Shown here piece after piece: positions 9,138 through 64,000 of a DNA stretch of 64,000 nt. The first letter of the stretch is position 1; every line of letters begins with the position of its first letter. A model generated the notes under the pieces. The model worked only from the letters and a program-made list of their open reading frames with translations. It did not search any database and was not told the DNA's origin. This stretch comes from Halichondria panicea. Lineage: Eukaryota > Porifera > Demospongiae > Suberitida > Halichondriidae. A program made the translations under genes and the position numbers. Location: positions 3,114,001-3,178,000 of the forward strand of contig NC_087390.1 in the NCBI RefSeq assembly GCF_963675165.1. The letters are read 5' to 3'.

Positions 9138-9139
9138 TC

Positions 9140-19367: not shown

Positions 19368-22300
19368 TCATTTCCCAAATGCATGATAGTCACTATTTTC
19401 GTCCGAATTTGAGTCGGAATCTCGATCTCTGTTTGACAATTCCATGTCATCCCAGTCCTGGACTTGAACTAAATCAAGTCGTTTTGTCTTCTTTAGAGCA
19501 TCTCTCACTTTGCACACAAGTCTCACAAGAATATAAGCTATCATGTACACAATAGGACAGTTCATGATGAGAACCAGCAAAGTAGTTGAATATGGAAGAA
19601 GTTGGGAGTCGTCACCATTAGGAAATTTACTGTTGTCATAATTGAATCGTGTCACTTGGTTGATGATTATCAGACACAAAAGGAGCAGTGAATCCAAAAT
19701 ATTGTGCCATCGCTTGAGATAAGGCTGTGCAATGCTGTGGATGAGTAGGAACGAAACAAGTAAGACGTCCAGTGTTAAGTATTGATGGCTCAATGTTGGA
19801 AAAAGGGTTGTACAGATAATTAGCACTCGATACACGAAATACAAACCAGCGAAAACTCGATAGTTGTCTTTAAAGCAGCTCTGAAAGGAATCCAAGAATG
19901 GTTTCAGTTTTGAGTACGGTGCATGAACAAACATTTTAGCTATTGAATTTGTATCAACACATTTACAAATGGACAACAGTTTGAAACAAAATGGATATAT
20001 TAGTAGAAGCAGCATTGGAATAAACATGATAAGCATGCACAGAACTGCAAAAATAGCATACTTCAGATGATCCCCTGAAAATGGCGTCAAGTTACCTTGA
20101 AGAAATACAACAGTTTGATAGAAGATGTTACCCTGGCCGTATACATGGGTGATGTTAAGGATTTGACTGCAAACTTTGAAGCATCGGGAAAACACGATCA
20201 CGAGCACTGCTGATAAACCGTGTATAATGGACGACTTGATAGTAGAGTAACGAAAACAACTGCATTTCTGCAGAATATTGCAGTAGTTTATCAGGCCAAC
20301 AGTTATGATTACCAAAAGAAGTACATAAACAACAGTTGTAAACTTGAACATAAGCATATCCATTGTTGTGGCTCCTCTCCATAGGCAAAATGAAAGCTTA
20401 TCATGAAGGAAGAAATCTAAATTGAACACATTGTAGATCATTCTGGTTATGGTGTATGTATGATACACTGGATTTGGAAATATGATGAATGAATTTCCAG
20501 TGACAGGTATAGAATCAATCACTTGTGAAAAGAAAATAAATCCATTGACTGCGCCAGATGTGAAACTAATGTTTAGTACAGTTGTCAAGACAAATAAAAC
20601 AGTTAGTGGGAAAAGCTCAGATATAATGTAAAGAAGCCATCCGTAATCACACGATTCATTTTTTTGACAGTTGTGATTCATCCCATGATAATGAACGGAA
20701 TAATTCTCTCGACATTCACCACAGAGCCTTCCAGTTCGATAAATGCCACAGACCTCCTTGTCAAGCATCTCTTTAGTTTTAGGTAAGACTGAGTTTTGAT
20801 CAAAGTGATTACAATAGCCACCAGGACAGTATCCATATTCAAAATTACGTGTGTTATTATTGAACCCAAACCAGTATCCTTTTTGCAAATGTGCTTGAAA
20901 AAGTTTATAATCACACTGGTGTATGGGTCGAAATGCCGTTTCCAAAGTTGAAGCACTGCAAACGCAGTTTTCGGTAGATTCATCCAAAAAATACCCTGGT
21001 GGGCATTCCAAGAGAGATATATTGATGTTAAGCCTCAATTCGCGATATCCTAATTTTTGTAGTCTTAGCACACTATCACTTCCAGGTTGCCCATTTAGTT
21101 GCACCTTTCTATTGGATATATACGTGTACGGTTGACCGAGTTTGACACTTGATGTATTTTTACTTAGTGTTGCGTAGTATACTGCATCTATTGTTTGGTA
21201 GTAATCATTTATTACTGATATTGGCAAATTAGTTTTACGTCCAGGGTATACTTGAAAGTACTGGTTGTCACCAAGAAACATCGTTTTGTTTATTTGAAAT
21301 TGTCCTCCTGAAGTTGATAGATGACATTTGATATCGGCACCATGGAAAATGAATGTACCGACACAGGTGAATGTATGTGCATAGTGATGAGTTGTACGTT
21401 CGAATCCCTCAGTTGGATGATTGCATGCAGTAATACACGTTTGTAATGAAGGAGAGAAAATGTCATGGCCAGCAGCGTAACATTCAGTTTGATTGCCCTC
21501 GGCAATCTCAGCGTAATTGTCTTTAAATTCAAATGTTACATTCGAATTTTTTGAGTCAACAGATCCATGATATTGAATAAAACAACTTCTCGATGATACA
21601 AAGTTGTGTTTGTCAATGTTGTACTCATAGATAGCTCCACCCCTTCTCAAAGCAGTGTTTTTATTGAAAGTAAATGAGTTTTTTTCCATCACAAACAAAG
21701 CTGATAATCCAACAAATGCAATTGCACCACCTTCAAATCCGTAATTTCCGACAAAGTCGCATATGGTGTCAGGTCTTGTTGTAATGATACTGGATGAAAG
21801 GTAGAGTGCAGAGCCTGAGTTACCTTCAAATATTATCAAACCACTAAATATTGCATTGAAATCTGTAAGCATCATTGAACCCCTTCCATTTTCATAACCT
21901 GTATAGTTCTGAGAATCCAAACTCACTGTATTTGATCTGAATTCACAGTTATGAAACACTGGTACTGGTAAGAATCCTTTAGATAAAATCTCCCATACAT
22001 GTGGAGCAATATCAATTGCTGATCCGTATTTAGCTTCATTTTGTGTCCAATTACAATGATAAAACTCCAAGACATTTAGCAAATCAGATTTTTCTCTTCG
22101 AATTGAGTAGACTCGAATCCCTCCCCCATAAACTGCCCAGTTTCTTTCAAATGTACAGTGATCAAAATGCACTGTATTGTTGGATATTAAAGCAGTATTG
22201 TAGCCTATGTCCACACCACCACCTCCAAAATGTTTACACGTATTATCTTGAATCGTAAGATTTAATAGCTTAATGATGTTGTGACTGCTAGAGTCTTGTA

Positions 22301-23210
22301 TGACTATGTAGAGACCACCTCCCCAATTTGCTTCGTTAGCTCTGAATGTACAGTCACGAATTGTAAATGTATTGAAGTTAGATTTCCCACTTAGCTGTAT
22401 TGACAGTCCACCACCTCTGCCCAGCCCTTGGTGATTTAGTCGTGAGTTATTCTTGTATTGCATGTATTTTGAGCCCCAGAACTGAGCTTTGTTATTGGAA
22501 AATGTGCAGTTAGCCAGCAAATAACGATTCCCCCTTGCTCTCATATTTTCAGGCTTGCTGTTAAAATCTGTGCAGTAAACACCAGCTGCGCAGACAGTGA
22601 ATTCAATGTAAAGTCCACCGCCTCGGAAAATATCGTCAATTTTTGTGTTCTGCTGTGAATTGTGCTCGAAAACAGAATTTAATATCTCAACAACTCCACT
22701 GACGTCATACATAACAAGACCAACTCCAGAATTGTTGAAGACATAAAGTCCATTAACAGAAAGGTCAGTACAGTTAATAATGTACAATGCGCTGCTCAGT
22801 TGAACCATGCTATTCATATACTTGTCCTCGGTTGTACTGTCATGTACCAAGCCACAACCAACTATTTTTAAACTTCTGATAGTCAAGCCGGTAACGTGTA
22901 CAAACTTTAGGCCACCTTCGATCCCATTGCACCTTAATGTAGTGTTATTCTTGCCAACAAATGTGATATTGGTGAGATTGCTCAAAACAATTGGCTTGGA
23001 AATATCAATATCTCCTGAGCAGAAACGAATTATTGTGTCATTTCCAATCTTCTCCGTATCAAAAATAATATCACACTCTTTTTGATGACCGTTCGTCTCT
23101 ATAGAACAAATACAGTTTGAATGTTGTCCAAATACGATGTGGTGTAGGATGATGATAGCTATTGCTAAAAGCAGCATGAAGTGTCTTTGGTTACTCATCT
23201 TCACAGACAA
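19368..23210 (-). CDS. BH1: intact beta-helix/multipass membrane protein
   Basis: An uninterrupted 1280-residue minus-strand frame. Residues 1-29 form a signal peptide (hydrophobic HFMLLLAIAIIILHH). Residues ~30-620 are beta-helix-like, with GGGLYIEF, GRGGGLSIQL, WGGGLYIVI, FGGGGVDIG, YGGGIRVY and RRGGAIYEY turns, many NxS/T sites and paired Cys. A Cys-rich segment follows (CPPGYFLDESTENCVC, then CPGGYCN and GRLCGECRENYS). From about residue 855 there are eight or so hydrophobic segments with KPFLDSFQSCF and LKRWHNILDS, and an acidic cytosolic tail (NRDRDSDSNSDENSDYH). BH0 has the same plan. This architecture suggests a large surface receptor, adhesin or channel-like protein; function unknown. 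It is the only complete BH gene here, since the array breakpoint cuts the others at the position matching 19948. Confidence 0.88.
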   Translation of the reverse strand: MSVKMSNQRHFMLLLAIAIIILHHIVFGQHSNCICSIETNGHQKECDIIFDTEKIGNDTIIRFCSGDIDISKPIVLSNLTNITFVGKNNTTLRCNGIEGGLKFVHVTGLTIRSLKIVGCGLVHDSTTEDKYMNSMVQLSSALYIINCTDLSVNGLYVFNNSGVGLVMYDVSGVVEILNSVFEHNSQQNTKIDDIFRGGGLYIEFTVCAAGVYCTDFNSKPENMRARGNRYLLANCTFSNNKAQFWGSKYMQYKNNSRLNHQGLGRGGGLSIQLSGKSNFNTFTIRDCTFRANEANWGGGLYIVIQDSSSHNIIKLLNLTIQDNTCKHFGGGGVDIGYNTALISNNTVHFDHCTFERNWAVYGGGIRVYSIRREKSDLLNVLEFYHCNWTQNEAKYGSAIDIAPHVWEILSKGFLPVPVFHNCEFRSNTVSLDSQNYTGYENGRGSMMLTDFNAIFSGLIIFEGNSGSALYLSSSIITTRPDTICDFVGNYGFEGGAIAFVGLSALFVMEKNSFTFNKNTALRRGGAIYEYNIDKHNFVSSRSCFIQYHGSVDSKNSNVTFEFKDNYAEIAEGNQTECYAAGHDIFSPSLQTCITACNHPTEGFERTTHHYAHTFTCVGTFIFHGADIKCHLSTSGGQFQINKTMFLGDNQYFQVYPGRKTNLPISVINDYYQTIDAVYYATLSKNTSSVKLGQPYTYISNRKVQLNGQPGSDSVLRLQKLGYRELRLNINISLLECPPGYFLDESTENCVCSASTLETAFRPIHQCDYKLFQAHLQKGYWFGFNNNTRNFEYGYCPGGYCNHFDQNSVLPKTKEMLDKEVCGIYRTGRLCGECRENYSVHYHGMNHNCQKNESCDYGWLLYIISELFPLTVLFVLTTVLNISFTSGAVNGFIFFSQVIDSIPVTGNSFIIFPNPVYHTYTITRMIYNVFNLDFFLHDKLSFCLWRGATTMDMLMFKFTTVVYVLLLVIITVGLINYCNILQKCSCFRYSTIKSSIIHGLSAVLVIVFSRCFKVCSQILNITHVYGQGNIFYQTVVFLQGNLTPFSGDHLKYAIFAVLCMLIMFIPMLLLLIYPFCFKLLSICKCVDTNSIAKMFVHAPYSKLKPFLDSFQSCFKDNYRVFAGLYFVYRVLIICTTLFPTLSHQYLTLDVLLVSFLLIHSIAQPYLKRWHNILDSLLLLCLIIINQVTRFNYDNSKFPNGDDSQLLPYSTTLLVLIMNCPIVYMIAYILVRLVCKVRDALKKTKRLDLVQVQDWDDMELSNRDRDSDSNSDENSDYHAFGK

Positions 23211-24127
23211 ACTTAGTATGTCTAGAACTGCTCAACTATTATGATATTGAAACCCAATAATTATTGATATAGGAGTAGAAGTTTTGGGGTAAATTAATTG
23301 TTAGTAATCACGTTAAAATCATCATTATACTACTTAATCAATCATAAAGAGAGCCAAAGCAAACTGATAGACCTAGTAGTCGTATTCGAATAAGGGCTAT
23401 ATACATGTCATGCAGCAAAAAATAACTAGCTGAAATGTCACAATCATTGTTGTTAACTTGAGCTTCACCCTATATATATAATAACAAAAGAACTTATTTC
23501 TTAATGCCTTCTGAAGTTTTCTTTGTCAGCCTGTTGTTTGGGTGTGTATATTGTTGAAATCAAAAATAAAATTTGTTTTCTACTTCTGGCTGCAGAGAAC
23601 TAACAACTTAGATCTAGCAAGGGTATAACACCAGGTATAGTGCTATATGCATGTAATAATGCTGTCGAAGGACTCGAAGCCTTCCTGTCCTGAGCTGGTG
23701 TGGAATACGCCGTTGACAATAATTATAATAATAGCTCTTGCATGGTTGATTTTGATCTGTGTACTTATCGATCTAGCAATGACACTATATGCCCACACTG
23801 TTGATTATGCTCTTGCATGGTTGTTTTGCTCTGTGTACTTATCGATCTAGCAATGACACTATATGCCCACATTGTTGATTATGTTCTTGCATGGTTTTTT
23901 TTTATCTGTGTACTTATCGATCTAGCAATGACACTACGTATATATATGCCCACACTGTTGATTATGCTCTTGCATGGTTGTTTTGATCTGTGTACTTATC
24001 GATCTAGCAATGACACTATATGCCCACACTGTTGATTGCTCTTGCATGGTTGTTTTGATCTGTGTACTTATCGATCTAGCAATGACACTATATGCCCACA
24101 CTGTTGATTATGCTCTTGCATGGTTGT

Positions 24128-24187
24128 TATGCCTCGAGGCGTAGCCGCACGAGGGATACGGTAAAGCTGACTGTGTGTGTGTGTGTG

Positions 24188-24218
<31 letters not shown>

Positions 24219-24980
24219 GTGTGTGTGTGTGTATTCCAGCTATAACTGCTCAACGGTTGCAATGCGACGAAAACTAACAGCTTCTATAGGCTTCTAGCCA
24301 CGTTTTCTTGGATTTTGATTCGTGGATTAGCAAACTAAAGCTTCTTTCTCGAGTTATGGCTAGTTTGACTCACATTGAAGGCTGTTGCAGTCTCTTCAGA
24401 ATCTTTCATAGCATCATCTGTCCGCACAAACTTTCTATTCAACATATGAGTTAGCCTTGCACTAAAGCGCTAGCTTTTTGTTAGCTACAATACTCAGAAA
24501 ATATCTGTTAAAACAGCTAGCTAGCAGTAGCCATTTTGATCTCTTTGGACACACCCTTTAATTATTCCTGTGGATGTAATGCGCATGCGCGCTCATTCCC
24601 CATGTGTGATATCCAAGATCCAGATCCAGATTCTCCTGGCAGAATCATCTTTGTCTTGCGGGCCTGGCAAGCCACAAAACACTACCATATAACAATATAG
24701 ATAACAATATGCATGTACACAGGTCTTTTCTTCTTAGATATTATATACACTGAACTACAGATCCTGGAAGAATCAATTTTCTTCTTTCTTGAGGTCCTGG
24801 TAAGCCACATAATACAATAAATAACAACAATAGAACATGTAAATAAGTCTTTTCTTCTCAGTGACTTTATATAGATAAGCTAACTTTAATATAAAATTCA
24901 TTATAGATAACACTCTAATACTTTTGAGCGAAAGCAAAAACATGGCGAGAGGCATTAGCACAGCGCCAGCTTGAACACTA
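24128..24980. mobile_element. Insertion in the minisatellite, related to the long inverted-repeat element
   Basis: The repeat unit breaks after CATGGTTGT and resumes at TTTTGATCTG. The insert starts TTATGCCTCGAGGCG and shares CTTCTATAGGCTTCTAG, GTTTTCTTGGATTTT and TTCTCGAGTTATG with the arms at 12.4-14.1 kb. It contains a (TG)n(TCTG)n microsatellite at 24171-24232 and two diverged ~120-bp copies of a CCTGGCAAGCCACA-containing segment (about 24620-24880). It is absent from unit 2. Confidence 0.7.
24171..24232. repeat. (TG)n(TCTG)n microsatellite
   Basis: CTGTGTGTG runs into CTGTCTGTCTG and back to TGTGTG over 62 bases. Confidence 0.95.
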
Positions 24981-25321
24981 GTTTTGATCTGTGTACTTAT
25001 CGATCTAGCAATGACACTATATGTCCACACTGTTGATTGCTCTGGCATGGTTGTTTTGATCTGTGTAATTATCGATCTAGCAATGACACTATATGCCCAC
25101 ACTGTTTACTATGCTGTATGTGTATGTATAATTTATATCTACAAACATTGTTGTTGTTGTTTTATACTGAAGCCACAATGTAGTTGTAAATTGAAACTGA
25201 TTGCGTTTTGGACTAACATGGAAGACTTCTAGTTTGTCTACATTACGTTCATAATAATCCAATCATAAGTTATATAGTACCTTAATTTGCATCTTGAAGT
25301 TTTCTACAATCTAATCTCACG

Positions 25322-26774
25322 ATGAAAGCCACATTTTTATCAAGATGCAAGTGCAAGTACAGAGTGAGGTGGTTCTATTCAAAGGGAGCATTTCTTGTTT
25401 TGGTATGGATTATGCTGTTGATCATAACATGTTTCTCTGTGGGATATCCCAGCCATATTTGGTATGTTCGGAGCTGTTTTCTCGGGATGGCTAGCCGACG
25501 CTAAGCTTGGGAACTACAGAGTTATGAAATGCAGTTTTGTGCTTTTGTTTTTCACAAGTTTGTGTTGTAGTGCCTGCACCATAGTCCCTGGTATTATGCC
25601 TTACATATACGTTAAAAGTTTCTTGTTTTGTATCGGTGTAGGTACGTTTGTAGTATCTGCAGTGGCATGCTTGGTTACTTTACTACAACTCGGTTTGGAC
25701 CAGATGCCTGATGCTTCATCTTCTAGTTTCACCAGCTTTATTTCCTGGTTTATATTCAGTATATTTGCTGGTATTTGGATCAGTACTTTATCAATACACT
25801 TTTATTCAAACAAAACATTGTCAACTTGGATTTTCCAGCTATACAGTTTAGTTCCACCTTTTTGTATGACTTGTGTCTTAGTTTCAGACTTCATTTTTGC
25901 CAAAAAATTGTTGATAATTGAGCCAAAGTCACCTCAGTCCCTCAAAACCATCTACCATGTTCTCAAGTTTGCTGCCAAGCACAAAGCTCCCCTAAATCGC
26001 AGTGCTCTCACATACTGGGAGGAAGATGTACCTTCAAGAATGGACTTGGGAAAGTCGAGATACGGTGGACCATTCACTACAGAGCAAGTTGAAGATGTAA
26101 AGACCATCTTACGTTTGTTGCCCCTCTGCTTAACACTATGGTTACTAGGGTGCTCACTTGCATTCTTTCATCCATCAACTTCTGTTACGGTTTATCTTCC
26201 TAATTGGACCCTATATTCATCCATGTTTCTGGCCTTATTCACTTACAACTCTTGGTGGTGTGGTGTGGTTTGGACTGTCTTATATGAGTTCGTAATCTAC
26301 CCAGTAATACAAAATAGACTTCTCAGCATCCTTAGAAGACTTGGAATAATCTCTTTCTTCATAACGGCTCTCAGTATTGTGTTCCTAATTCTGGAAGTAG
26401 TACACTACTATCACAGTGATTTAATGGCAGTCTGTTTCATCATTGACATATTGCATTCAGTTTCTAAAGGTTTGTTCACAATACTGCTTTTTAGTACCAT
26501 GCTGGAGTTTGTTTGTGCTCAAGCTCCATACAACATGAGAGGATTGTTTGGAGGGTGTACGATTCTTGTGTTGTTTTCATCATTTATTATCAGTTATAAT
26601 CTTCCGTTGAATCTCACACTTACAATGTATGGGATTAGAGTAGGGATCAGTCTGCTTGGATTCATCCTGTACTGCCTCCTGGCACGCTGGTACAAGAGGA
26701 GAGTTAGAGACGAGGACTATAATACACAAACGGTTGTGGAGGAAATCTATGATCGTTACTTGTCAGCTCAGTAG
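25322..26774 (+). pseudogene. POT-B: POT-family transporter broken by a 71-bp deletion
   Basis: The start (MKATFLSRCKCKYRVRWFYSKG) and the long frame from 25464 to 26774 both belong to a POT-family protein, but they are in different frames. Relative to POT-B', 71 bases between TTCTCTGTGGGA and TATCCCAGCC (near 25444) are missing. This removes the extracellular loop and start of the second membrane segment and shifts the frame, giving a 60-residue truncated product. Downstream is intact: LADAKLGNYRVMK, DQMPDASSSSFTSF, FTTEQVEDVKTILR, CAQAPYNMRG and the RVRDEDY tail. Translation from the internal Met at 25464 would lack segment 1. It is probably a recent pseudogene. Confidence 0.8.
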
Positions 26775-27454
26775 TGAGTGATATTTTCTGGAAGGGGATT
26801 GTTATTATAGAGTTATACATAATTATAGCAAATGCATTGACTGCAGCCTCCACCTCATGCAATAATTGCATATATAGCAGTACGTACCGGCACAGTTTAT
26901 ATGTGTGAGGTATCAACTATTACATTGTTTTATCAGTGAGATATGCTGCATAATTTTTATATGTATTACGTCAGTCTAGAATATTGCTTAAAGGTTTTTC
27001 ATTTACCACAAGTATAATACCATGGTTTATTAGTGTACTATAATCAGCTACGTAGCAGCACAATTAATCGTCTTCACCGACAACGAATGACTTAATTATG
27101 AGTAGGAGCTTGCATTTGGAAGTGATGTATACAATTATATATACATACTGTAAAACAGCACAGGAATTTTGTAAAGAGGAGTACAGATATATTATAAAAT
27201 GATGTATTTTGTAAACTATGGCATCGAGTGGTGTATATTACTTGCAAACGAATCGGTTTATTATTTATTGTTGGTGGGGCCGATTGAAAGTGGGACTAGA
27301 ATTACTCGTGTTCTTGTTGCTTGAAAAGTCAAATTAGAGTTGAAACACTGCTAAAGTGTATATAGATCTAAGGGTACTTCTTCACTCACTATCAATAGAG
27401 TGTATAGTTCCCTCACAAACAAGCTAGAGAGAGTCTAGTCTGTTACACTTGTTT

Positions 27455-27613
27455 CAAAGGTATAAACTTTCGCGGAATGACCGGTAGAAAGGTTTTCACG
27501 GATTTAATTTCGTTGAATAGCAGTTTGCATGCATGTATGCGATAGTAATTAAATGTTCGCGGTAGATGCTTGATCATGAACATTTATACCCTCGAAATAT
27601 ACCCACTAAACGG
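27455..27613. mobile_element. MITE, type 1 interior, left tip missing
   Basis: The right end (ACCCTCGAAATATACCCACTAAACGG, then TA) and interior (GGTATAAACTTTCGCGGAATGACCGGTAG) match the complete element at 47450, but the left tip TGTATAGCGGGTATATTTCG is deleted in this unit. Confidence 0.7.
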
Positions 27614-27743
27614 TAGTATTTGTACCAGTACAACTGATGCCTTTGATCTTTGGTGCAACCATAGTACAAAGCTATACACACGCCTACTGTTAGCGTCATT
27701 GTACAAACTGAAACCACAAGTATAGCTGTATATACTGTAATAT

Positions 27744-27760
27744 TATAAACTTTGAAACCA
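27744..27760 (+). promoter_or_regulatory. Shared TATA-like motif upstream of POT-C
   Basis: TATAAACTTTGAAACCA is identical to the motifs before POT-A and POT-C'. It lies about 110 bp before the chosen start. Confidence 0.35.
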
Positions 27761-27871
27761 TAATTTTGTACTGACATAAATACTGCGAAAACTGATCGTG
27801 TTTTTGAACAACGGGAGAGTACTTTGACAACTCAATATGCGATATATCATGACCACAGTCTCTTAAAGTTC

Positions 27872-29413
27872 ATGATGAGAGCCAACAGAATTACATCTGT
27901 ATCAAGATGCAAGTGCAAGTACAGAGTGAGGTGTTTCTATTCGAAGGGAGCATTCCTCGTTTTGGTATGGATTATGCTGTTTACCATAACATGTTCGTCT
28001 TTGGGACATGTACTTAGTACCTACAGAGCAACTCTACAAGATGATGACCCAATCATTCCAAAGTGGGTATTTGCTATCCCAGCCATATTTGGCTCGTTGG
28101 GAGCTGTTTTCTCGGGATGGTTGGCTGACGCAAAGCTGGGAAACTACAGAGTGATGAAATACAGCTTTGTGTTGCTATTCTTCACAAGTTTGTGCGGGAG
28201 TGCCTATACCCTAGTTCCTAGTATTGTACACTTCAATTTGTACATTGAAAGTGTTTTCTATTGCATAGGTGGGAGTCTCGTTATAGTAGCTGTAGTAGCA
28301 GGCTTGGTTACTTCACTACAGCTAGGCCTGGATCAGATGCCCGATGCTTCATCTTCTAGCATTACCAGTTTTATTGCCTGGTTTGTATTCAGTGTCTGCA
28401 CTGGTAATTGGATTAGCACTTTTCCATTTTGGGCAATAAAATATTGTTCAAATACAGCAACTTATGTTACCCAGCTATACAGTTTAGTTCCACCTTTTTG
28501 TATGACTGGTGTCCTGGTTTCAGACTTCGTCTTTGCCCAAAAATTGTTGATAATTGAGCCAAAGTCACCTCAGCTCATCAAAACCATATACCAAGTTCTT
28601 AAATTTGCAGCCAAGCACAAGGCTCCCCTAAATCGCAGTGCTCTCACATACTGGGAGGAAGATGTGCCCTCAAGAATGGACCTAGGAAAGTCGAGGTACG
28701 GTGGACCCTTCACTACAGAGCAAGTTGAAGATGTAAAAACTATCTTACGTTTATTTCCTCTCTGCTTAACGCTATGGCTACTAGGGAGCTCACTTGCAAT
28801 CTTCCATCCCCCAAGTTTTGTGAGAGTCGCTCCAACAGGCTGGACCACATGTACTTCCAGACTTCTGTCCTTGTTCACATACAACTCAATGTGGTGTGGT
28901 ATAATTTGGACTTTCTTTTACGAGTTTGTGGTTTACCCAGTGATACAAAACAGTCTTCCCAGCATTATTAGGAGAATCGGAATCATTTCTCTCGTCATAA
29001 CGACTCTCAGTATTGTGTTCCTAATTCTGGAACTAGTTTACTATTATCACAGCGATTTAGTGGCAGTCAGTTTCGTCATCGACATATTGCATTCAGTTTC
29101 TAGAGGTTTGCTCTCAATACTGCTTTGTAGTACCATACTGGAGTTGATTTGTGCTCAAGCTCCATACAACATGAGAGGATTTTTTGGTGGTTGTATGGTA
29201 TTTGTGTTGTTATCATCTGGTATTATTGCCTACTACTTTCCATCAAATCTCAACTTAACATTATATGGGGTTAGAGCAGGCTTCAGTATATTCGGATTCA
29301 TCCTGTACTGCCTCCTTGCTCGCTGGTACAAGAGAAGAGTTAGAGACGAGGACTACAATGCACAAACTGTTGTGGAGGAAGTATATGATCGATACTTGTC
29401 AACTCAGAATTAG
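27872..29413 (+). CDS. POT-C: POT/PTR2-like transporter
   Basis: An intact intronless frame. The MM at 27872 is preferred because POT-A, -C' and -F begin with MMxA; an in-frame ATG at 27824 would add 16 residues that are not conserved between the two copies. All local-family marks are present: KYRVRCFYSKG, SGWLADAKLGNYRVMK, QLGLDQMPDASSSSITSF, RYGGPFTTEQVEDVKTILR, CAQAPYNMRG and RVRDEDYNAQTVVEEVYDRY. It differs from POT-C' at roughly a score of residues (for example VFAIPA against VNAIPA, CGSAYT against CESAYT), more than any other intact pair in the array. The position of segment 1 carries KYRVRCFY in place of the acidic ExxER motif. Substrate unknown. Confidence 0.9.
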   Translation: MMRANRITSVSRCKCKYRVRCFYSKGAFLVLVWIMLFTITCSSLGHVLSTYRATLQDDDPIIPKWVFAIPAIFGSLGAVFSGWLADAKLGNYRVMKYSFVLLFFTSLCGSAYTLVPSIVHFNLYIESVFYCIGGSLVIVAVVAGLVTSLQLGLDQMPDASSSSITSFIAWFVFSVCTGNWISTFPFWAIKYCSNTATYVTQLYSLVPPFCMTGVLVSDFVFAQKLLIIEPKSPQLIKTIYQVLKFAAKHKAPLNRSALTYWEEDVPSRMDLGKSRYGGPFTTEQVEDVKTILRLFPLCLTLWLLGSSLAIFHPPSFVRVAPTGWTTCTSRLLSLFTYNSMWCGIIWTFFYEFVVYPVIQNSLPSIIRRIGIISLVITTLSIVFLILELVYYYHSDLVAVSFVIDILHSVSRGLLSILLCSTILELICAQAPYNMRGFFGGCMVFVLLSSGIIAYYFPSNLNLTLYGVRAGFSIFGFILYCLLARWYKRRVRDEDYNAQTVVEEVYDRYLSTQN

Positions 29414-30459
29414 CTACATCTTATACGTGTATATATATTGACTTGATACTCTCATGTAGTGAAAGAGAATATGAATGACCGTTCTACTGTACAAGCATGA
29501 ATCGGTGTGTCCTGATTTTACTATTAAGTGTTTGTTGAAAAGTTTCCATGCACATTACGGTACTGTAAAATCACACCTTGAGAGTCTGCCAAGTCTAGCA
29601 CTGAGAGTCCTGAGAGTATGCGTGTCTGTAAGTCTTGGTTGGCTTAAAAACTCGTTGTTTTGTGTTTTGGAATGCACTTTTTATTGTTAAACCTGTCAAT
29701 AGCATAGGTCTTGATTATTTTACAGTTATGAATAATTATGGCAAACATTTCGAGTCAGTAAACTCCAGTGGAGCAAAAATACTATAGAGCTCTATACGAA
29801 ATTAAATTTACAATAACACCATGAGAATACAGTGATACATGACTGTACGTAGTAACTTGCCTCTCTCTATATATATAGTGCAGCATTATGCTCTATATAG
29901 TATCTTATATATATATATATATAGTGGAACCTTTTATAACGGACTCTTTAAATAGCGGACCCTCCCAATAAAAGACACCTCCGAATATATAGCAGACAAA
30001 ACCTCTTGCACCAACTTGTCCGTTATTTGGAGGTTCCACTGTAGTTATAATTAGTACATTTGCTTCTCAGGTTGGTTAAGACTGTTTCACAAATAAGGGC
30101 CATTAAAATGAGAGAGAGAGTGCATTATTGCATAATTGTCATTGTGAAATGGTTTCATTGTGTACCTTTTTTATATACGTGAAAAGGATCAGGATGATAA
30201 CAACATTGCCATGGTTATTTCCATGTTGTTTATTTAATAACCAAAGAATGCTGCCAATACTAATCACTTTTATGTACAATCTTACTATCCGCAAAAGAAA
30301 GCTCTTACTATAGTGCATAGAAACTAGATGGATACTTATAGGACTGCATGCATGCTATCACGTATTTTGTTACAAATCATAAATGTCACGATATTTTACA
30401 AGAAATGGTAGTTGTTTATAGAACCTTCTTTATCTTTGCCTTCAGTCATCTTCTCACTC
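29414..30459. other. Intergenic between POT-C and POT-D (convergent 3' ends)
   Basis: POT-C and POT-D converge here. It contains a pogo-like MITE (29922-30041). Up to about 30240 it differs from unit 2 by many indels; beyond that the two units are almost identical. No gene is recognised. Confidence 0.55.
29922..30041. mobile_element. 120-bp pogo/Tigger-like MITE
   Basis: The left tip TAGTGGAACCTTTTATAACGG and the right tip, inverted, CAGTGGAACCTCC, are flanked by TA. CAGTGGAACCTC-type ends with a TA duplication are typical of pogo/Tigger elements. Confidence 0.75.
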
Positions 30460-47619: not shown

Positions 47620-47751
47620 TAGTATTTCTACCAGTATAAAACTACAACTGATGCCTTTGATCTTTAATTGGTGCAACCATAGTACAAAGCTATACACACG
47701 CCTACTGTTTAGCGTCATTGTACACACTGAAACCTGTATTTGCTGTAATAT

Positions 47752-47768
47752 TATAAACTTTGAAACCA
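47752..47768 (+). promoter_or_regulatory. Shared TATA-like motif upstream of POT-C'
   Basis: This is the same 17-mer as before POT-A and POT-C, about 100 bp before the chosen start. Confidence 0.35.
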
Positions 47769-47867
47769 TAATTTTTTACTGACATAAATACTGTGGAAAC
47801 TGATTGTGTTTTTGAACAAGGGGAGAGTACTTTAACAACTCAATATGCGATATATCACCACAGTCTC

Positions 47868-55245: not shown

Positions 55246-55950
55246 TTTCACTATAATTATAATTATTATATATGGCAGATTAACTTTCTAGTGTGTGTGG
55301 ATTGCAATTTACTACAATGATCTGCCACGGCCTATAAGTACTATAAAGTAGTGCATGCATGCATGGGAGAACTATAACACAATTATGTGGAAAGGACAGT
55401 ATATAACATTTGTACTAGATAACTACAACTGCATGTATATATATTTTATGCATAGCTTAGAAAAGTATGATTTATTGTTAATAGTGAACTGTCACTATAA
55501 TTATTCTGGTTATTATAGTTCATGACCTTAGTAAAAAACTTCTTTTGTGTTTTGGTTTTGTATAAATAGCATGTGTGTCTCTTTGTGAATATTGTTTGCT
55601 TATTGTTACCTGAACCGGCCTCTGTGACGACGCATTTGATCCTGCCAACAAGTAGTAACTCCCCCTAATAATTATTATAGGGCATTATAAAAATGGAGGT
55701 TTCAGTATTTATGGCATTATGATAATGTTGTTTCTGCATGTGTATATAATTATGTGACACAGTATACATTGGTGTGTAATCCTGTTACTTGTTTCATTGT
55801 ATAGTAAAACCACACTCTGTAGTTGTACAGACAACGTTAATGAAACTGATAGCGTTTGTAATAATTATAGAGATAGAGAGAGTGTGACTACAATAAGAAA
55901 ACGTTTGCTATTAGATCTAGTATTAATTGTTATACTAGTATACAAATCTT
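55246..55950. other. Intergenic between POT-E' and POT-F'
   Basis: Near-identical to 35212-35916, with scattered substitutions. No gene is recognised. Confidence 0.5.
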
Positions 55951-57480
55951 ATGATGAGAGCCAAATCAATAACAAGCAAGTGCAGAAGGAGGTGCTTCTA
56001 TTCCAAGGGAGCCGCTCTCATTTTGGTCTGGATTATGCTGGTGACCATAGCATACATCTCTGGAATAAATACAGTTAAAGCGTATGTAGAGCTAAAAAAT
56101 GACTTTATCTTACCAAAGTGGCTACCTGCTATCCCACTTGTGTTTGGTTTGTTGGGAGCTGTTTTCTCGGGATGGCTAGCAGACGCTAAGCTGGGGAACT
56201 ACAACGTGATGAAATCAAGTTTTGTACTATTGTTGTTCATAAGCTCGTGTTTTAGTGCATTCACCCTAGTCCCTGGTATCATGAATTACAAATATGTTGT
56301 GAGTGTCTTGTATTGTATAGGTGAGAGTATTTTTTTAGTAGCTGTAGTAGCATGCTTGGTTACTTCATTACAGCTTGGTTTGGATCAGATGCCTGATGCT
56401 TCATCTTCTAGTATCACAAGTTTTATTGCCTGGTTTGTATTCAGTATCTACACTGGTGTTTGGATCAGCTCTTTTCCAAATTTGTTGATAAAATTCTGTT
56501 CAAATACAGCTATTTGGTTTATCCAGCTATACAGCATAGTTCCACCTCTTTGTATGACTATTGTCCTAGTTTCAGACTTAATATTTGTAAAAAAGTGGTT
56601 ACTAATTGAACCAAAATCTCCTCAGTCTCTCAAAACCATCTACCGAGTTCTCAAATTTGCAGCCAAACACAAAGCTCCCATCAATCGCAGTGCTCTCACA
56701 TACTGGGAGGAAAATATACCTTCAAGAATGGACTTGGGAAAGTCGAGGTATGGTGGACCATTCACTACAGAGCAAGTTGAAGATGTAAAAACTATCTTAC
56801 ATTTATTTCCTCTCTGCTTAACGCTATGGCTACTAGGGGGCTCACTTGCAATCTTCCATCCCCCAAGTTTTGTGACAGTCGCTCCAACAGGCTGGACCTC
56901 GTGTACTTCCAGACTTCTGTCCTTATTCACATACAACTCTTGGTGGTGTGGTATGGTTTGGACAGTCTTATATGAGTTTGTGATTTACCCAGTGATACAA
57001 AACAGTCTTCCCAGCATTATTAGGAGAATCGGAATCATTTCTCTCCTCATAACAACTCTCAGTATTGTGTTTCTAATTCTGGAACTAGTCCTCTACTATC
57101 ACAGTGATTTAGTGGCAGTCGATTCTGTCATTGATATTATACATTCAGTTTCTAAAGGTTTGCTCAAAATACTGCTTTTTAGTACCATGCTGGAGTTGGT
57201 TTGTGCTCAAGCTCCATACAACATGAGAGGATTGTTTTGTGGGTGTATGGTGTTGGTGTTGGTTTTATCCTTTATTGTTGGCTATTATTTCCCATCAAAT
57301 ATAAAAATGACAATATATGGGGTTAGAGCGGGCATCAGTCTCCTTGGATTCATCCTGTACTGCCTCCTGGCACGCTGGTACAAGAGGAGAGTTAGAGACG
57401 AGGACTACAATGCACAAACTGTTGTGGAGGAAGTATATGATCGATACTTGTCAGCTCAGCATTCTGGACATGCCGAATAA
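55951..57480 (+). CDS. POT-F': POT/PTR2-like transporter
   Basis: An intact 509-residue frame, MMRAKSITSKCRRRCFYSKG at the start; POT-F has Gly at two of these Arg positions, and TIAYIS/TIVYIS also differs. The rest matches POT-F, including the HSGHAE extension. The Arg forms agree with MMRA in POT-A and POT-C, so POT-F' looks ancestral and POT-F derived at these sites. Confidence 0.9.
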   Translation: MMRAKSITSKCRRRCFYSKGAALILVWIMLVTIAYISGINTVKAYVELKNDFILPKWLPAIPLVFGLLGAVFSGWLADAKLGNYNVMKSSFVLLLFISSCFSAFTLVPGIMNYKYVVSVLYCIGESIFLVAVVACLVTSLQLGLDQMPDASSSSITSFIAWFVFSIYTGVWISSFPNLLIKFCSNTAIWFIQLYSIVPPLCMTIVLVSDLIFVKKWLLIEPKSPQSLKTIYRVLKFAAKHKAPINRSALTYWEENIPSRMDLGKSRYGGPFTTEQVEDVKTILHLFPLCLTLWLLGGSLAIFHPPSFVTVAPTGWTSCTSRLLSLFTYNSWWCGMVWTVLYEFVIYPVIQNSLPSIIRRIGIISLLITTLSIVFLILELVLYYHSDLVAVDSVIDIIHSVSKGLLKILLFSTMLELVCAQAPYNMRGLFCGCMVLVLVLSFIVGYYFPSNIKMTIYGVRAGISLLGFILYCLLARWYKRRVRDEDYNAQTVVEEVYDRYLSAQHSGHAE

Positions 57481-58755
57481 GATTGTGTAGTATATACGTA
57501 TTGTAGTACGTATGTGTGTATACATGTACATTTTGAAGTTGGTTTGTGTATGTGTGTGCACTTAGTTTAATGTGTGATTGTTGTTTTGTATTGTTAGCTA
57601 GTGCTTAATAGTAAGAGATTACTTGTCCAGTAACGAATAATAGTCAACACCATGCAGATACACGAGTATAAGAGTGCTAAATATAGACTCTAGCTAAATA
57701 TACACAACACCATAATAATTATGTAATGTTCAATACAGTTACATCACAAATTTTAGTTATGGTTTACGAATGCATGTTAAGTGAAGCAGAGCCGATAAGG
57801 TCATACCTTCTTTTTGTTTGGTGCATGTTAGATTACATTGTCTATAAATCGCTGTTAATGTTATACAGTAGACTCTCGCTATATTCCGGCTCTGAAGTAC
57901 GGCCACCTCGATATACCGGCCATTTGGTTTGGCACGGATTGCTAGCTAGATGTTTACTGCACAAAACTCGCCCTGAGCCACTCGATATTCCGTATACTGG
58001 CCATTACTGGCTGCCCCAAACTAGGTTTTCAATGTACGTTTATTACAGCCAGATATGACGTTTTGGGTGTGATTTGGCTGAATTATCCTCGAGACAGAAC
58101 CGCAAAATTAGTCATTAGATTCGAGGTAAGGTCATTTTTTTAGCCGCGGCTGTTTTCTGAAATGTGGCCACCTCGCTATTTCCAAGGGCCGGATTAACGA
58201 GAGTCTACTGTATATCCTTGAACTCATCAATCTTGCAAGTTGACTCCGCGCTTAGCTATAGACGTCTATAATTATAGTCAATGCTAAGACAGAACTCGGC
58301 TAATTATGAGGTGTTCTATAACATGTTTGAAGAAAAAGTTACCGTATAACGGGAAAATTTGGAAATTTAGCTATTAGACGCCGATTTAAAACTGCCAATA
58401 TTATTATAGCTCTTATGAGTCAGTGTTCTCGCACATATAATAGTTCGATTAATAAATAATAACGTAAACAAACTCTCTAAAGCCATTCTCGTAATTCATT
58501 ATTATTGTATATAAGGAGCATAATTATATAAACACACTATAGAGTACCTATAATGCATTACCGGCACATCTATACTCGGAAAAGATATCATTATATACCT
58601 GTGCCTCATGCTATTCCATCCATTGAATGAACTGAAGTTGGTAAATATAACCAGTAAAGTCGCTGGATCATTGAACAATCGTACTTTAAAATACATAAAT
58701 AATAATTATTGTTAGTCTTTATGCACATTGTACACAAAGCACAGTTAATCTATAG
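57481..58755. other. Intergenic between POT-F' and the second SLC38-like remnant
   Basis: It matches 37447-38723 and carries the same pogo-like MITE. No gene is recognised. Confidence 0.55.
57866..58210. mobile_element. 345-bp pogo-like MITE, unit 2 copy
   Basis: Same ends and TA flanks as at 37832-38176. Confidence 0.8.
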
Positions 58756-60882
58756 TCATGAAAGGTCAAAGTAAGTTTGGTTCCATTGTTCAACGGTCCT
58801 ACACTCCAGCTGAAAACACAGTCCACCGCTATCGTTGCCAGTCTCTATAACAGTATAGAGAGCTTGATAATTAGTCAGGAAGAGTAGTACAATACCAATC
58901 AGCAGGATACACCATGCTATGACTTCTTCTACAGCTGCCTTGGTAGTGTACTGCGATCGAATGCTTATGTTGTTATCTTGACCACGTTTTTTGTATCGAG
59001 CATATCGTAGCTTGAGGTAAATTGCCGCAGGGTAGATGTAGAGGATAAGCACTCCTCCTATAGAGCTGACAAAGTTCCATACGATTCCAACCTGCATTCA
59101 CAGTATAAAGGAATGTAAGCATGCATGTTTTGTATATACAGTGGACTCTCGCTAATCCGGCTCTCTGAAGTACAGTTATCTCGATATACTGGTCGTTTCC
59201 TTCGACACGGATGCTAGCTAGATTGTTATTGCACAAAACTCACCCTGAAATGCGGCCACTCCGAAATGGTTTTTACTGTTATTTTATTTTTTACGGCCGG
59301 ATATGATGTTTTGGGTGTGGTTGGATGAAAATTGGATTACACTAAACAGAGAGCATAATGATCCAAATATCTTCGAGACATATCCGCAAACTTATTCATT
59401 AGATTCGAGCCATGACCGCTATTTTAGACGCGGCTATTTTATGAAATGCAGCTATTCCGGCCAAACTGCACTGTCCCAAGGGTGACTGGATTAACGAGAA
59501 TCTATACTGTAATTATTACCATGGAGGAGCATTCATACACTCCTGATATTACACACAGGCCGTGATAAAAATGATATTTGCTTATAGATTTTCATTCATA
59601 ACGCTACCTCTTTAGAAATACATTCAATGAACAAATGCAGCTAGTGATGTTTGATTTTAATTACATGCATAGTGTGGTATAGCTCCTCAAATGTAATGTC
59701 TGTTGGTCTAAATAACTACTGTAAGACAAACTTACGTTCAAGATGAAGCTGGCTGGTATGAACGAGAGTGCAAAAAACATGTAGGTCTCACAGAACCAGA
59801 TTACTGTCGGAACCTGTGATTGTGCATGATCGAGTATAATAATTATTTTTATGCCAAATTGCACCATTAACAATTAAGATGAATTTTTCTAGCCACTATA
59901 CACTTGACTTACACTAATTAGGCCATTTCTTCTCATTTCAGGCCAAAAGAGAGTTAATAGTTGATGGTGTCAGGCCTTTATAGATAATAAGCACAAACCT
60001 TATGATTGCCATGTTTAGATTCACCAGCTGATCTTGAATCTTCCTTGCCAGTGCTCCCACTGCATTCTGAAAGAGACTGTAATTCGTCCTTATCACTTAC
60101 ACTGTCAGGTTTGGGCGATTGCATATCAGTTTCGACGGTATTAACATTTTCAGATTCTCCATTTGCTCTCAAATTAGTATTTTGGCCATTCTTCGTCGAC
60201 TTCTTTTTCTTGCAGAATTTACTTGAAATAAGGTCGTGTACCAGTAGGAACACACTGAGAGAGTGTGTGGTGCATGTGCACGGATAGGCATATAAGTACA
60301 CAGGGAGAAGGGGTGCATGGATGGTTCACTTATAGGGTCTACCATGGCATGCGGTACTTAGCCACAGCAAATAACTGTAGTATTGCATGCATTCTCGAAC
60401 TGTATTTAATTAGGATGGATTGAATTCTAACTGTTCTCAAACATGAGCTACGTGCAGAGCAATCTAAATTCATATGCTGTATGAATCCAGGCCAAGAATA
60501 TCACCTGTTTGTAGCGTCTCTGCCCGGGTGCAGTCCCACAGGGTAACTGGTGATTAGCATGAAAAGCAGGGCCACACGAGCAGCTATCAACAGGTAGTTA
60601 CGCCTCGAGTAGTTTAATATTACATTTTCCTTCAAGTTTTCAAAAAACTGCATGCGTGTGGGGTGAATGAAGTAATACGTCCAATGACACAATACGATAC
60701 TACAAATAAATATATTGGTCCTCAGGTACAAAATTGTCACTAACGCTTACCCTAAAATATCCTGCAAAAACCGCAATATTGAAGATTGTATACGCAATCA
60801 CAGCGTAGCCAATGTTGATGGCATACAGCCTCAGTTTTGTAGGTCGACCTCTTAACTCCTTCTGAAGTCGTACAATGTTGAA
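58756..60882 (-). pseudogene. SLC38-like 3' exons, unit 2 copy
   Basis: Same exon set as at 38724-40851: to 60751, 60647-60505, from about 60254, 59813-59736 and 59091-58756. In the Ser/Glu loop this copy keeps the frame (KEDSRSAGESKHGNHK, then GTTTGTG as a possible donor), where unit 1 has an extra base. The 5' part is again replaced by BH sequence at the same base, so this copy is also headless. Confidence 0.7.
59139..59509. mobile_element. 371-bp pogo-like MITE in the SLC38-like intron, unit 2 copy
   Basis: Same position and ends as 39107-39477; the right end here reads TTAACGAGAATCTATACTG. Confidence 0.75.
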
Positions 60883-63800
60883 CTTGTATCAACACATTTA
60901 CAAATGGACAACAGTTTGAAACAAAATGGATATAAATTATTAGTAGAAGCAGCATTGGAATAAACATGATGAGCATGCACAGAACTGCAAAAATAGCATA
61001 CTTCAGATGATCCCCTGAAAATGGCGTCAAGTTACCTTGAAGAAATACAACAGTTTGATAGAAGATATTACCCTGGCCGTATACATGGGTGATATTAAGG
61101 ATTTGACTACAAACTTTGAAGCATCGGGAAAACACAATCACGAGCACTGCTGATAAACCGTGTATAATGGACGACTTAATAGTAGAGTAACGAAAACAAC
61201 TGCATTTCTGCAGAATATTACAGTAGTTTATCAGGCCAACAGTTATGATTACCAAAAGAAGTACATAAACAACAGTTGTAAACTTGAACATAAGCATATC
61301 CATTGTTGTGGCTCCTCTCCATAGGCAAAATGAAAGGTTATCATGAAGGAAGAAATCTAAATTGAACACATTGTAGATCATTCTGGTTATTGCATGTGTA
61401 TATATGATACACTGGATTTGGAAATATGATGAATGAATTTCCAGTGACAGGTATAGAATCAATCACTTGTGAAAAGAAAATAAATCCATTGACTGCGCCA
61501 GATGTGAAACTAATGTTTAGTACAGTTGTCAAGACAAATAAAACAGTTAGTGGGAAAAGCTCAGATATAATGTAAAGAAGCCATCCGTAATCACACGATT
61601 CATTTTTTTGACAGTTGTGATTCATCCCATGATAATGAACGGAATAATTCTCTCGACATTCACCACAGAGCCTTCCAGTTCGATAAATGCCACAGACCTC
61701 CTTGTCAAGCATCTCTTTAGTTTTAGGTAAGACTGAGTTTTGATCAAAGTGATTACAATAGCCACCAGGACAGTATCCGTATTCAAAATTACGTGTGTTG
61801 TTATTGAACCCAAACCAGTATCCTTTTTGCAAATGTGCTTGAAATAGTTTATAATCACACTGATGTATGGGTCGAAATGCCGTTTCCAAAGTTGAAGCAC
61901 TGCAAATGCAGTTTTCGGTAGATTCATCCAAAAAATACCCTGGTGGGCATTCCAAGAGAGATATATTGATGTTAAGCCTCAATTCTCGATATCCTAATTT
62001 TTGTAGTCTTAGCACACTATCACTTCCAGGTTGCCCATTTAGTTGCACCTTTCTATTGGATATATACGTGTACGGTTGACCGAGTTTGACACTTGATGTA
62101 TTTTGACTTAGTGTTGCGTAGTATACTGCATCTATTGTTTGGTAGTAATCATTTATTACTGATATTGGCAAATTAGTTTTACGTCCAGGGTATACTTTAA
62201 AGTACTGGTTGTCACCAAGAAACATTGTTTTGTTTATTTGAAATTGTCCTCCTGAAGTTGATAGATGACATTTGATATCGGCAGCATGGAAAATGAATGT
62301 ACCAACACAGGTGAATGTATGTGCATAGTGATGAGTCGTACGTTTGAATCCCTCAGTTGGATGATTGCATGCAGTAATACACGTTTGTAATGAAGGAGAG
62401 ACGATGTCATGGCCAGCAGCGTAACATTCAGTTTGATTGCCCTCGGCAATCTCAGCGTAATTGTCTTTAAATTCAAATGTTACATTCGAATTTTTTGAGT
62501 CAACTGATCCATGATATTGAATAAAACAACTTCTCGATGATACAAAGTTGTGTTTGTCAATGTTGTACTCATAGATAGCTCCACCCCTTCTCAAAGCAGT
62601 GTTTTTATTGAAAGTAAATGAGTTTTTTCCATCACAAACAAAGCTGATAATCCAACAAATGCAATTGCACCACCTTCAAATCCGTCATTTCCGACAAACT
62701 TGCATATGGTCTCAGGTCTTGTTGTAATGATACTAGATGAAAGGTAGAGTGCAGAGCCTGAGTTACCTTCAAATATTATCAAACCACTAAATATTGCATT
62801 GAAATCTGTAAGCATCATTGAACCCCTTCCATTTCATAACCTGTATAGTTCTGAGAATCCAAACTCACTGTATTTGATCTGAATTCACAGTTATGAAACA
62901 CTGGTACTGGTAAGAATCCTTTAGATAAAATCTCCCATACATGTGGAGCAATATCAATTGCTGATCCGTATTTAGCTTCATTTTGTGTCCAATTACAATG
63001 ATAAAACTCCAAGACATTGAGCAAATCAGATTTTTCTCTTCGAATTGAGTAGACTCGAATCCCTCCCCCATAAACTGCCCAGTTTCTTTCAAATGTACAG
63101 TGATTAAAATGCACTGTATTGTTGGATATTAAAGCAGTATTGTAGCCTATGTCCACACCACCACCTCCAAAATGTTTACACGTATTATCTTGAATCGTAG
63201 CTTAATGATGTTGTGACTGCTAGAGTCTTGTATGACTATGTAGAGACCACCTCCCCAATTTGCTTCGTTAGCTCTGAATGTACAGTCACGAATTGTAAAT
63301 GTATTGAAGTTAGATTTCCCACTTAGCTGTATTGACAGTCCACCACCTCTGCCCAGCCCTTGGTGATTTAGCCGTGAGTTATTCTTGTATTGCATGTATT
63401 TTGAGCCCCGAAAATGTGCAGTTAGCCAGCAAATAACGATTCCCCCTTGCTCTCATATTTTCAGGCTTGCTGTTAAAATCTGTGCAGTAAACACCAGTTG
63501 CGCAGACAGTGAATTCAATGTAAAGTCCACCGCCTCGGAAACAATTTTTGTGTTCTGCTGTGAATTGTGCTCGAAAACAGAATTTAATATCTCAACAACT
63601 CCACTGACATCATACATAACAAGACCAACTCCAGAATTGTTGAAGACATAAAGTCCATTAACGAAAAGGTCAGTACAGTTAATAATGTACAATGCGCTGC
63701 TCAGTTGAATCGTGCTATTCATATACTTGTCCTCGGTTGTACTGTCATGTACCAAGCCACAACCAACTATTTTCAAACTTCTGATAGTCAAGCTGGTAAC

Positions 63801-64000
63801 GTGTACAAACTTTAGGCCGCCTTCGATCCCATTGCATCTTAATGTAGTGTTATTCTTGCCAACAAATGTGATATTGGTGAGATTGCTCAAAATAATTGGC
63901 TTGGAAATATCAATATCTCCTGAGCAGAAACGAATTATTGTGTCATTTCCAATCTTCTCCGTATCAAAAGTAATATCACACTCTTTTTGATGACCGTTCG
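60883..64000 (-). pseudogene. BH3: decayed beta-helix/multipass gene copy (5' end outside window)
   Basis: Closely matches BH2 but has indels BH2 lacks: +4 near 61392, -1 near 62627, -1 near 62834, -10 near 63200, -20 near 63408 and -7 near 63537, plus the shared 5-base insertion near 60940 and the junction truncation. The frame is broken repeatedly. It keeps the Arg codon (CGA) that became a stop in BH2, so that nonsense change arose after the BH2/BH3 split. The start codon should lie about 150 bases beyond the window edge. Confidence 0.85.
60883..64000. repeat. Tandem array unit 3 (start only)
   Basis: It begins at the same chimeric junction as unit 2 and continues past the window edge. 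Confidence 0.85.

What the first reader, a model, noticed from the sequence alone, without database searches (positions are those of the whole stretch)
19948..64000. Head-to-tail ~20-kb array of a transporter/receptor cluster with a chimeric BH/SLC38-like junction
Three units share gene order and orientation. Both junctions are the same base-level join of a BH membrane domain to the middle of an SLC38-like exon. One ancestral tandem duplication with breakpoints inside two genes explains why BH1 is complete on the left, why BH2 and BH3 are truncated, and why both SLC38-like copies are headless. It predicts a complete SLC38-like gene to the right of the array.
Basis: partly seen in the sequence, partly recalled or inferred. 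Interest (0 to 1): 0.85.

Follow-up and report, generated by a model that had tools for sequence, protein, structure and literature searches.

The report
Tandem triplication breaking two genes
A 20-kilobase stretch of a chromosome, probably an animal's, was copied head to tail and later grew to three copies; the cut points fell inside two genes, so each inner join holds two broken genes while the intact originals survive at the outer ends, an ordinary but unusually readable example of how gene clusters grow.

Summary
Units are 19943-40846 and 40847-60877, plus a third from 60878 that continues outside the window to window-frame 86891 (26 kb, longer largely because of repeat-like insertions). 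One duplication does not give three units: the middle unit resembles unit 3 on its left side and unit 1 on its right side, as expected if a two-copy array grew by unequal crossing over. The join is out of frame, so no BH-SLC38 fusion protein is encoded; BH2, BH3 and one of the two headless SLC tails carry further disabling changes. Between the fragments lie SLC15A4-like transporter genes, of a family with at least about 80 loci here. Whether the third copy is real or a haplotype-merging artefact cannot be settled without reads. Partial and chimeric tandem duplicates are common in animals, so this is a new example of a known kind.

The parts
19943..40846 (+). Unit 1 (20.9 kb); left end lies inside the intact BH1 gene, right end is join J1
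40847..60877 (+). Unit 2 (20.0 kb), mosaic: left side like unit 3, right side like unit 1
60878..64000 (+). Start of unit 3; continues outside the window to window-frame 86891 (26.0 kb)
40842..40850 (.). Join J1: SLC exon joined to BH coding sequence; 1-bp exact overlap within a 7-nt near-match (TTGAA[C/T]T on the + strand)
60873..60881 (.). Join J2, identical to J1 over 200 bp
19368..23198 (-). BH1: intact beta-helix plus membrane-domain gene (1287-aa open frame 19368-23231, 1276 aa from its first Met), left-hand parent of the join
40847..44110 (-). BH2: lacks about the last 190 codons of BH1; in-frame TGA at codon 193 (counted from window 23201 in BH1); 5-bp insertion about 55 bp before the join
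60878..64000 (-). BH3 (cut by window end): same truncation and same 5-bp insertion, plus private gaps of 7, 20, 10, 1 and 1 bp and a 4-bp insertion
38724..40846 (-). Headless Aa_trans (SLC38-like) tail 1: last part of exon 7 and exons 8-11 of the parent; 1-bp insertion in exon 9
58756..60877 (-). Headless Aa_trans tail 2; lengths of the exons kept are as in the parent
25428..26774 (+). POT-A (SLC15A4-like), unit 1 copy, N-terminal part lost
45111..46669 (+). POT-A, unit 2 copy, frame broken twice (three overlapping open frames)
27869..29413 (+). POT-B, unit 1, open frame intact
47862..49412 (+). POT-B, unit 2, open frame intact
30460..31980 (-). POT-C, unit 1, open frame intact; nearly identical in all three units
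50474..51994 (-). POT-C, unit 2, open frame intact
33700..35211 (+). POT-D, unit 1, open frame intact
53734..55245 (+). POT-D, unit 2, open frame intact
35917..37446 (+). POT-E, unit 1, open frame intact
55951..57480 (+). POT-E, unit 2, open frame intact

Best explanation
An ancestral locus carried one BH gene on the left, five SLC15A4-like transporter genes, and one Aa_trans gene on the right. A tandem duplication with breakpoints inside the BH coding sequence and inside exon 7 of the Aa_trans gene produced two units and one join (shown: the join and both parents; inferred: end joining or template switching, since the overlap is 1 bp exact within a 7-nt near-match). Later an unequal crossing-over between the two units, somewhere between about 26.4 and 33 kb in unit-1 coordinates, gave three units with two copies of the same join (inferred from the mosaic middle unit). 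The outer, intact BH and Aa_trans genes remain; the inner fragments decay. The practical product is extra copies of intact transporter genes B, C and D (three each) and E (two).
For: Intact parents at both predicted ends: the 200-bp join has two full and two half matches in the genome; 11-exon parent gene model, 590 aa, Aa_trans 1.5e-50; similarity between array and this gene ends at the join. Sites at which two units agree against the third: in 19943-26442, u2=u3 87, u1=u2 13, u1=u3 15; in 32943-40846, u1=u2 119, u2=u3 15, u1=u3 12 (a second alignment setting gives 97/15/14 and 128/15/12, same call). Divergence between parent side and copy side is similar left and right (1.9% and 1.7%), and so is divergence between the two copies (0.53% and 0.34%), as two events would give. 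Indels agree: a 5-bp difference separates BH2 and BH3 from BH1; 20-bp and 19-bp differences separate both SLC tails from the parent. The greater length of unit 3 is largely repeat-like sequence.
Against: The zone 26443-29942 does not fit a single clean crossover: u1=u2 78, u2=u3 48, u1=u3 49, all different 3 of 3405 columns, so conversion or other alleles must be added. The zone 29943-32942 is almost identical in all three units (9 of 2991 sites differ) although unit 3 differs from the others by 1.7-3.8% in the neighbouring zones, which needs later homogenisation. No outgroup with an unduplicated locus was available, so which state is ancestral at single indels is inferred. No reads were available, so copy number three rests on the assembly alone.
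Confidence: 0.85

Rival explanations
1. The duplication and its join are real, but the third copy is an assembly artefact: each haplotype carries two units and the assembler ran from one haplotype into the other, making a false middle unit.
For: Such a switch would also make a middle unit that looks like unit 3 on the left and unit 1 on the right. Divergence between the two join-side copies (0.34-0.53%) is a plausible allelic distance (inference), and a nearly identical zone of 3 kb (29943-32942) offers a place to switch.
Against: No N in the 104 kb read. In 26443-29942 all three pairs of units differ by 2.9-3.8%, more than the copy-copy distance elsewhere. Unit 3 has three blocks of repeat-like sequence that the other two lack. 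None of this is decisive.
Confidence: 0.12
2. The whole array is an assembly artefact: one unit per haplotype, wrongly strung together.
For: Only that reads are not available here.
Against: The joins fall inside an exon and inside a coding sequence and are identical at both places, and the join-side copies share differences from the outer parents (5 bp in BH2/BH3; 20 bp and 19 bp in both SLC tails). Stacking of haplotypes would not be expected to cut two genes at the same base twice.
Confidence: 0.03
3. The join created a new working gene (truncated BH protein with a new C-terminal tail) that was kept by selection for a time and may have favoured the expansion.
For: BH2 and BH3 share no disabling change other than the 5-bp insertion near the end (BH2 has a private stop, BH3 private gaps), and the frame with the 5-bp insertion stays open through the join, 61 codons in all. 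Of the changes private to BH2 or BH3, 11 of 23 are synonymous, against 21-29% expected for random changes under four transition weights.
Against: Both copies are disabled now. The counts are small, and patches in which BH2 or BH3 agrees with BH1 (row 20943) suggest conversion, which would also lower the share of amino acid changes. BH and SLC frames do not agree across the join. No transcript data.
Confidence: 0.08

Closest known systems
[quoted passage not shown] passages seen)
   Same: Head-to-tail copy whose join unites parts of two genes; the passages count 76 chimeric genes among 1116 duplications
   Different: The example in that paper's figure 2 legend joins a 5' end to a 3' end and is transcribed; here the join is BH 5' part to SLC 3' part on one strand, but out of frame and untested for transcription, and it was later copied again
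Partial and chimeric gene duplicates (review PMC3449122; passages and section 14 seen)
   Same: Fragments of two genes duplicated across their boundaries; the review gives 56-86% structurally heterogeneous duplicates in C. elegans and D. melanogaster
   Different: Here a 20-kb unit with five transporter genes lies between the two fragments
SLC15A4 (POT family)
   Same: A profile of 8 window proteins matches SLC15A4 chains of solved structures over profile positions 67-476 of 506 (best 5.3e-14)
   Different: Very divergent: no POT model among Pfam matches at E 1 for 5 proteins; the match starts after the first membrane segment
Aa_trans amino acid transporters (SLC32/36/38)
   Same: Intact right-hand parent matches PF01490 at 1.5e-50
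   Different: Subfamily not fixed; SLC36A1 is the only solved-structure match at E 0.01

Membership tests
Tandem segmental duplication | Adjacent copies in the same orientation | tested here: met
Tandem segmental duplication | Join formed from the right end of one unit and the left start of the next, with both undisrupted parents at the outer ends | tested here: met
Tandem segmental duplication | Join supported by single molecules, depth proportional to copy number | not testable with these tools
   no reads held
Array growth by unequal crossing over | Inner unit recombinant between the outer two, identical joins | tested here: met
   but the zone 26443-29942 is a mosaic, and a haplotype-merge artefact would look alike
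Chimeric gene duplicate (definition of PMC3449122) | Derived copy made of two or more duplicated donor sequences, at least one genic | tested here: met
Chimeric (fusion) protein-coding gene | Reading frame continues from one parent into the other | tested here: not met
   the BH frame ends ten codons past the join; after the 5-bp insertion a third frame is read; the SLC frame has stops just upstream of the join
SLC38 | Aa_trans domain | tested here: met
SLC38 | Closer to SLC38 than to SLC36/SLC32 | tested here: inconclusive
   only SLC36A1, E 0.0057; no tree made
SLC15 / POT | Sequence similarity to a POT transporter over the membrane core | tested here: met
SLC15 / POT | Match to the Pfam POT model (PF00854, number recalled) | tested here: not met
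   no POT model among matches at E up to 1 for 5 proteins
SLC15 / POT | ExxER motif of the first membrane segment (recalled) | tested here: inconclusive
   the alignment does not reach that segment
Beta-helix (Chlam_PMP-like) membrane protein | Right-handed beta-helix repeats | tested here: met
   at E 0.1, Chlam_PMP in 9 of 12 and Beta_helix in 3 of 12 members; BH1 itself Chlam_PMP 0.0004
Beta-helix membrane protein | Receptor function | not testable with these tools
   no assay; a profile search of solved structures gave 4 weak matches, all outside the membrane part

The most novel reading that the evidence does not exclude
The join copy of BH was a working truncated gene (beta-helix plus shortened membrane domain, with a new tail of about 60 residues, most of it read out of frame from an amino acid transporter exon) for much of its life, and was lost independently in both descendants after the array grew to three.
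Probability: 0.08. Interest if true: 0.45.

Novelty: new member of a known kind. Interest (0 to 1): 0.27.

Why it matters
It is a clean example in which both parents, the join and a later unequal exchange can be read from one assembly, with the two steps separable by divergence. It shows one way in which a large transporter family (85 matches listed, many clustered on contigs C14 and C6) gains members. Gene models called at such joins would be fragments, which matters for annotation. It does not reveal a new mechanism.

Tried and rejected
In-frame BH-SLC fusion: rejected, frames disagree. Only one event for three copies: rejected, since one duplication gives one join and the site patterns differ left and right. 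Unit 3 longer because of an extra gene of the cluster: not supported; the block at window-frame 68490-70640 matches other places at 78-100%, 64624-66047 at 97-99% over most of its length, and of the third block (73285-75908) the part searched, 74001-75908, matches elsewhere mainly in its first half; 73285-74000 was not searched. Species: not identified; a sponge was suspected from recall only. Of the 15 papers listed (14 on sponges, one on a sea fan) no abstract as shown gives a 131-Mb assembly. Paper searches that led nowhere: (0 papers; 2 unrelated papers; 8 listed of 73 and of 307; nothing on this BH or this transporter family seen in the listings; 10 listed of 26) was seen as a listing only; one search listed 15 of 47, of which I opened two. 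Errors that I replaced: the POT-A frame was wrong (20 stops) and its numbers are not used; one search uses the right frame. One search read a wrong frame; one search shows the unit-3 POT-D frame open (511 aa); the single 'stop' counted for POT-D in unit 3 comes, I think, from a 6-bp gap in the codon alignment. One search failed on a file name and was redone.
Full report
OBSERVATION. The window is G000:C14:3114001-3178000 of a 131-Mb genome in 39 contigs; that it is an animal's is my inference from its genes. Self-comparison shows three head-to-tail units in one orientation. Unit 1 is 19943-40846, unit 2 is 40847-60877, unit 3 starts at 60878 and leaves the window. With 40 kb of the right flank (no N in the 104 kb) unit 3 is seen to end at 86891-86898 in window-frame coordinates; no match longer than 300 bp to the array is listed beyond that point. 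Units are 20.9, 20.0 and 26.0 kb. The extra length of unit 3 comes mainly from blocks at window-frame 64624-66047, 68490-70640 and 73285-75908 that are absent from units 1 and 2. The first two blocks match many other places in the genome (97-99% over most of the length for the first, 78-100% for the second; 40 candidates scored in each); of the third, the part 74001-75908 was searched and matches elsewhere mainly in its first half.

JOINS. The 200 bp around each join are identical in J1 and J2. Searched against the whole genome, that 200-mer has 4 matches: both joins in full, its first 107 bases in the right-hand SLC gene (98%), its last 100 in BH1 (93%). On the + strand the three sequences read ...GTTGAACTGACAG (SLC parent)...GTTGAACTTGTATC (join) and ...ATTGAATTTGTATC (BH1): one base of exact overlap inside a 7-nt near-match. 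This suits end joining or template switching; that step is inference.

PARENTS. Left: BH1, a 1287-aa open frame at 19368-23231 (-), with Chlam_PMP-type repeats (0.0004) and a hydrophobic C-terminal part; outside the array its closest relative is 59% identical, at C14:3418663-3422550. Right: an 11-exon model at window-frame 90226-84745 (-), with GT after and AG before each exon at all internal edges, giving 590 aa without an internal stop; Pfam Aa_trans 1.5e-50. The first exon and the start codon are my choice and have no transcript support. A family search had already placed an N-terminal Aa_trans exon at C14:3203494-3203622, window-frame 89494-89622. The join lies inside exon 7 (87065-86765).

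FATE OF THE FRAGMENTS. BH2 keeps the DNA of about 1086 of 1277 codons (counted from window 23201) and has a TGA at codon 193; its protein similarity to BH1 ends at 1073. BH3 has gaps of 7, 20, 10, 1 and 1 bp and a 4-bp insertion. Both share a 5-bp insertion relative to BH1, about 55 bp before the join. Read in the BH1 frame across the join, the frame ends ten codons past it; after the 5-bp insertion a third frame is read and stays open for 61 codons; neither is the SLC frame, which has stops just upstream of the join. Tail 1 of the SLC gene has a 1-bp insertion in exon 9; in tail 2 the lengths of the exons kept are as in the parent, but both tails lack all exons before exon 7 and part of exon 7.

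HOW THREE COPIES AROSE. In a three-way alignment I counted sites at which two units agree against the third. For 19943-26442: u2=u3 87, u1=u2 13, u1=u3 15 of 5324 columns. For 32943-40846: u1=u2 119, u2=u3 15, u1=u3 12 of 7855 columns. Between them, 26443-29942 has u2=u3 48, u1=u2 78, u1=u3 49 and 3 sites at which all differ, of 3405 columns, and 29943-32942 only 4, 3 and 2 of 2991. Columns with a gap in any unit were left out. A second alignment setting leaves the left and right results unchanged in kind (97/15/14 and 128/15/12, same call). So the middle unit is of unit-3 type on the left and of unit-1 type on the right, which is what unequal crossing over within a two-copy array makes. Parent-to-copy divergence is 1.9% on the left and 1.7% on the right; copy-to-copy divergence is 0.53% and 0.34%. 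The second step is therefore clearly younger than the first. Against a perfectly simple story: the zone 26443-29942 is a mosaic, and the nearly identical zone around POT-C (no amino acid change among the three units) needs later homogenisation.

ARTEFACT. An assembler that runs from one haplotype into the other could imitate the second step, not the first. The join itself is hard to explain as an artefact: it falls at the same base inside two genes in both places, and the join-side copies share differences from the outer parents. I put 0.12 on a false third copy and 0.03 on a false array.

DID THE JOIN MAKE A GENE? BH2 and BH3 share no disabling change except the 5-bp insertion near the end. 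Of the changes private to one of them, 11 of 23 are synonymous, against 21-29% expected at random. That leaves room for a time in which the truncated gene worked, but patches of agreement with BH1 suggest conversion, the counts are small, and both copies are broken now. I give this 0.08.

WHAT IS AMPLIFIED. The ~510-aa single-frame genes between the two fragments match solved SLC15A4 chains (single protein 2.8e-10; profile of 8 window proteins 5.3e-14 over positions 67-476) but no POT model in Pfam (5 proteins, E up to 1). POT-B, POT-C and POT-D have intact frames in three of three units, POT-E in two of three (broken in unit 3), POT-A in none of three. A genome search with POT-E lists 85 matches, with 84 of 658 candidates scored, and the broken POT-A copies of units 2 and 3 are not among them, so the family is at least about 80 loci, many of them in clusters on C14 and C6. 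The effect of the array is thus most simply a gain of transporter gene copies; that the extra copies matter to the animal is not shown.

COMPARISON AND NOVELTY. Tandem duplications that cut genes and leave joins of two genes are well described: 76 chimeric genes among 1116 duplications in Drosophila yakuba (PMC5460883, passages) and 56-86% partial or chimeric duplicates in C. elegans and D. melanogaster (PMC3449122, section 14). The present case is a new example of this kind, with a further step of expansion. I make no claim that it is absent from print.

Noticed in passing
window 14777-16324, 27869-37446 and copies; C14, C6, C7 and others elsewhere: A large, tandemly clustered family of SLC15A4-like genes with no intron in the copies read here (85 matches listed, two of them pieces of one gene; 84 of 658 candidates scored) that gave no match to a Pfam POT model in 5 members tried.
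   Followed up: partly
window 34312-34536 (POT-D) against 15434-15658, 25887-26111, 28523-28747, 36541-36765: A ~225-bp core (protein around HKAPLNRSALTYWEEDIPSRMDLGKSRYGGPFTTEQVEDVK) is 85-91% identical between POT-D and its paralogues, while their other matching pieces are only 74-76% identical: strong constraint or conversion.
   Followed up: no
window 29943-32942 and the matching parts of units 2 and 3: All three units are almost identical here (9 of 2991 sites differ), including non-coding DNA, although unit 3 differs from unit 1 by 1.7% or more in the zones on either side: recent homogenisation around POT-C.
   Followed up: partly
window 39102-39479; related pieces at 37825-38130: Repeat in an intron of the SLC tail, ~375 bp, with 39 further rows at 69-80% identity across the genome (40 of 1161 candidates scored); its ends look like a pogo/Tigger-type element (recalled).
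   Followed up: no
L007:624-2047: 1.4-kb repeat with 40 other rows of 1.1-1.4 kb at 97-99% identity (40 of 1049 candidates scored), with parts of it also matching in inverted orientation; looks like a recently active mobile element.
   Followed up: no
window 23734-24128 and 44633-44934: 74-bp tandem repeat (5.2 and 4.0 copies) upstream of the BH genes, differing in copy number between units.
   Followed up: no
window 1-3459: Long ankyrin-repeat open frame (1152 aa, open at the window's left end).
   Followed up: no
window 5237-9161 (-): A second gene that looks to be of the BH kind (beta-helix-like and membrane parts in two overlapping frames, 686 and 650 aa; Chlam_PMP 0.0023, below its cut-off); not part of the array.
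   Followed up: no
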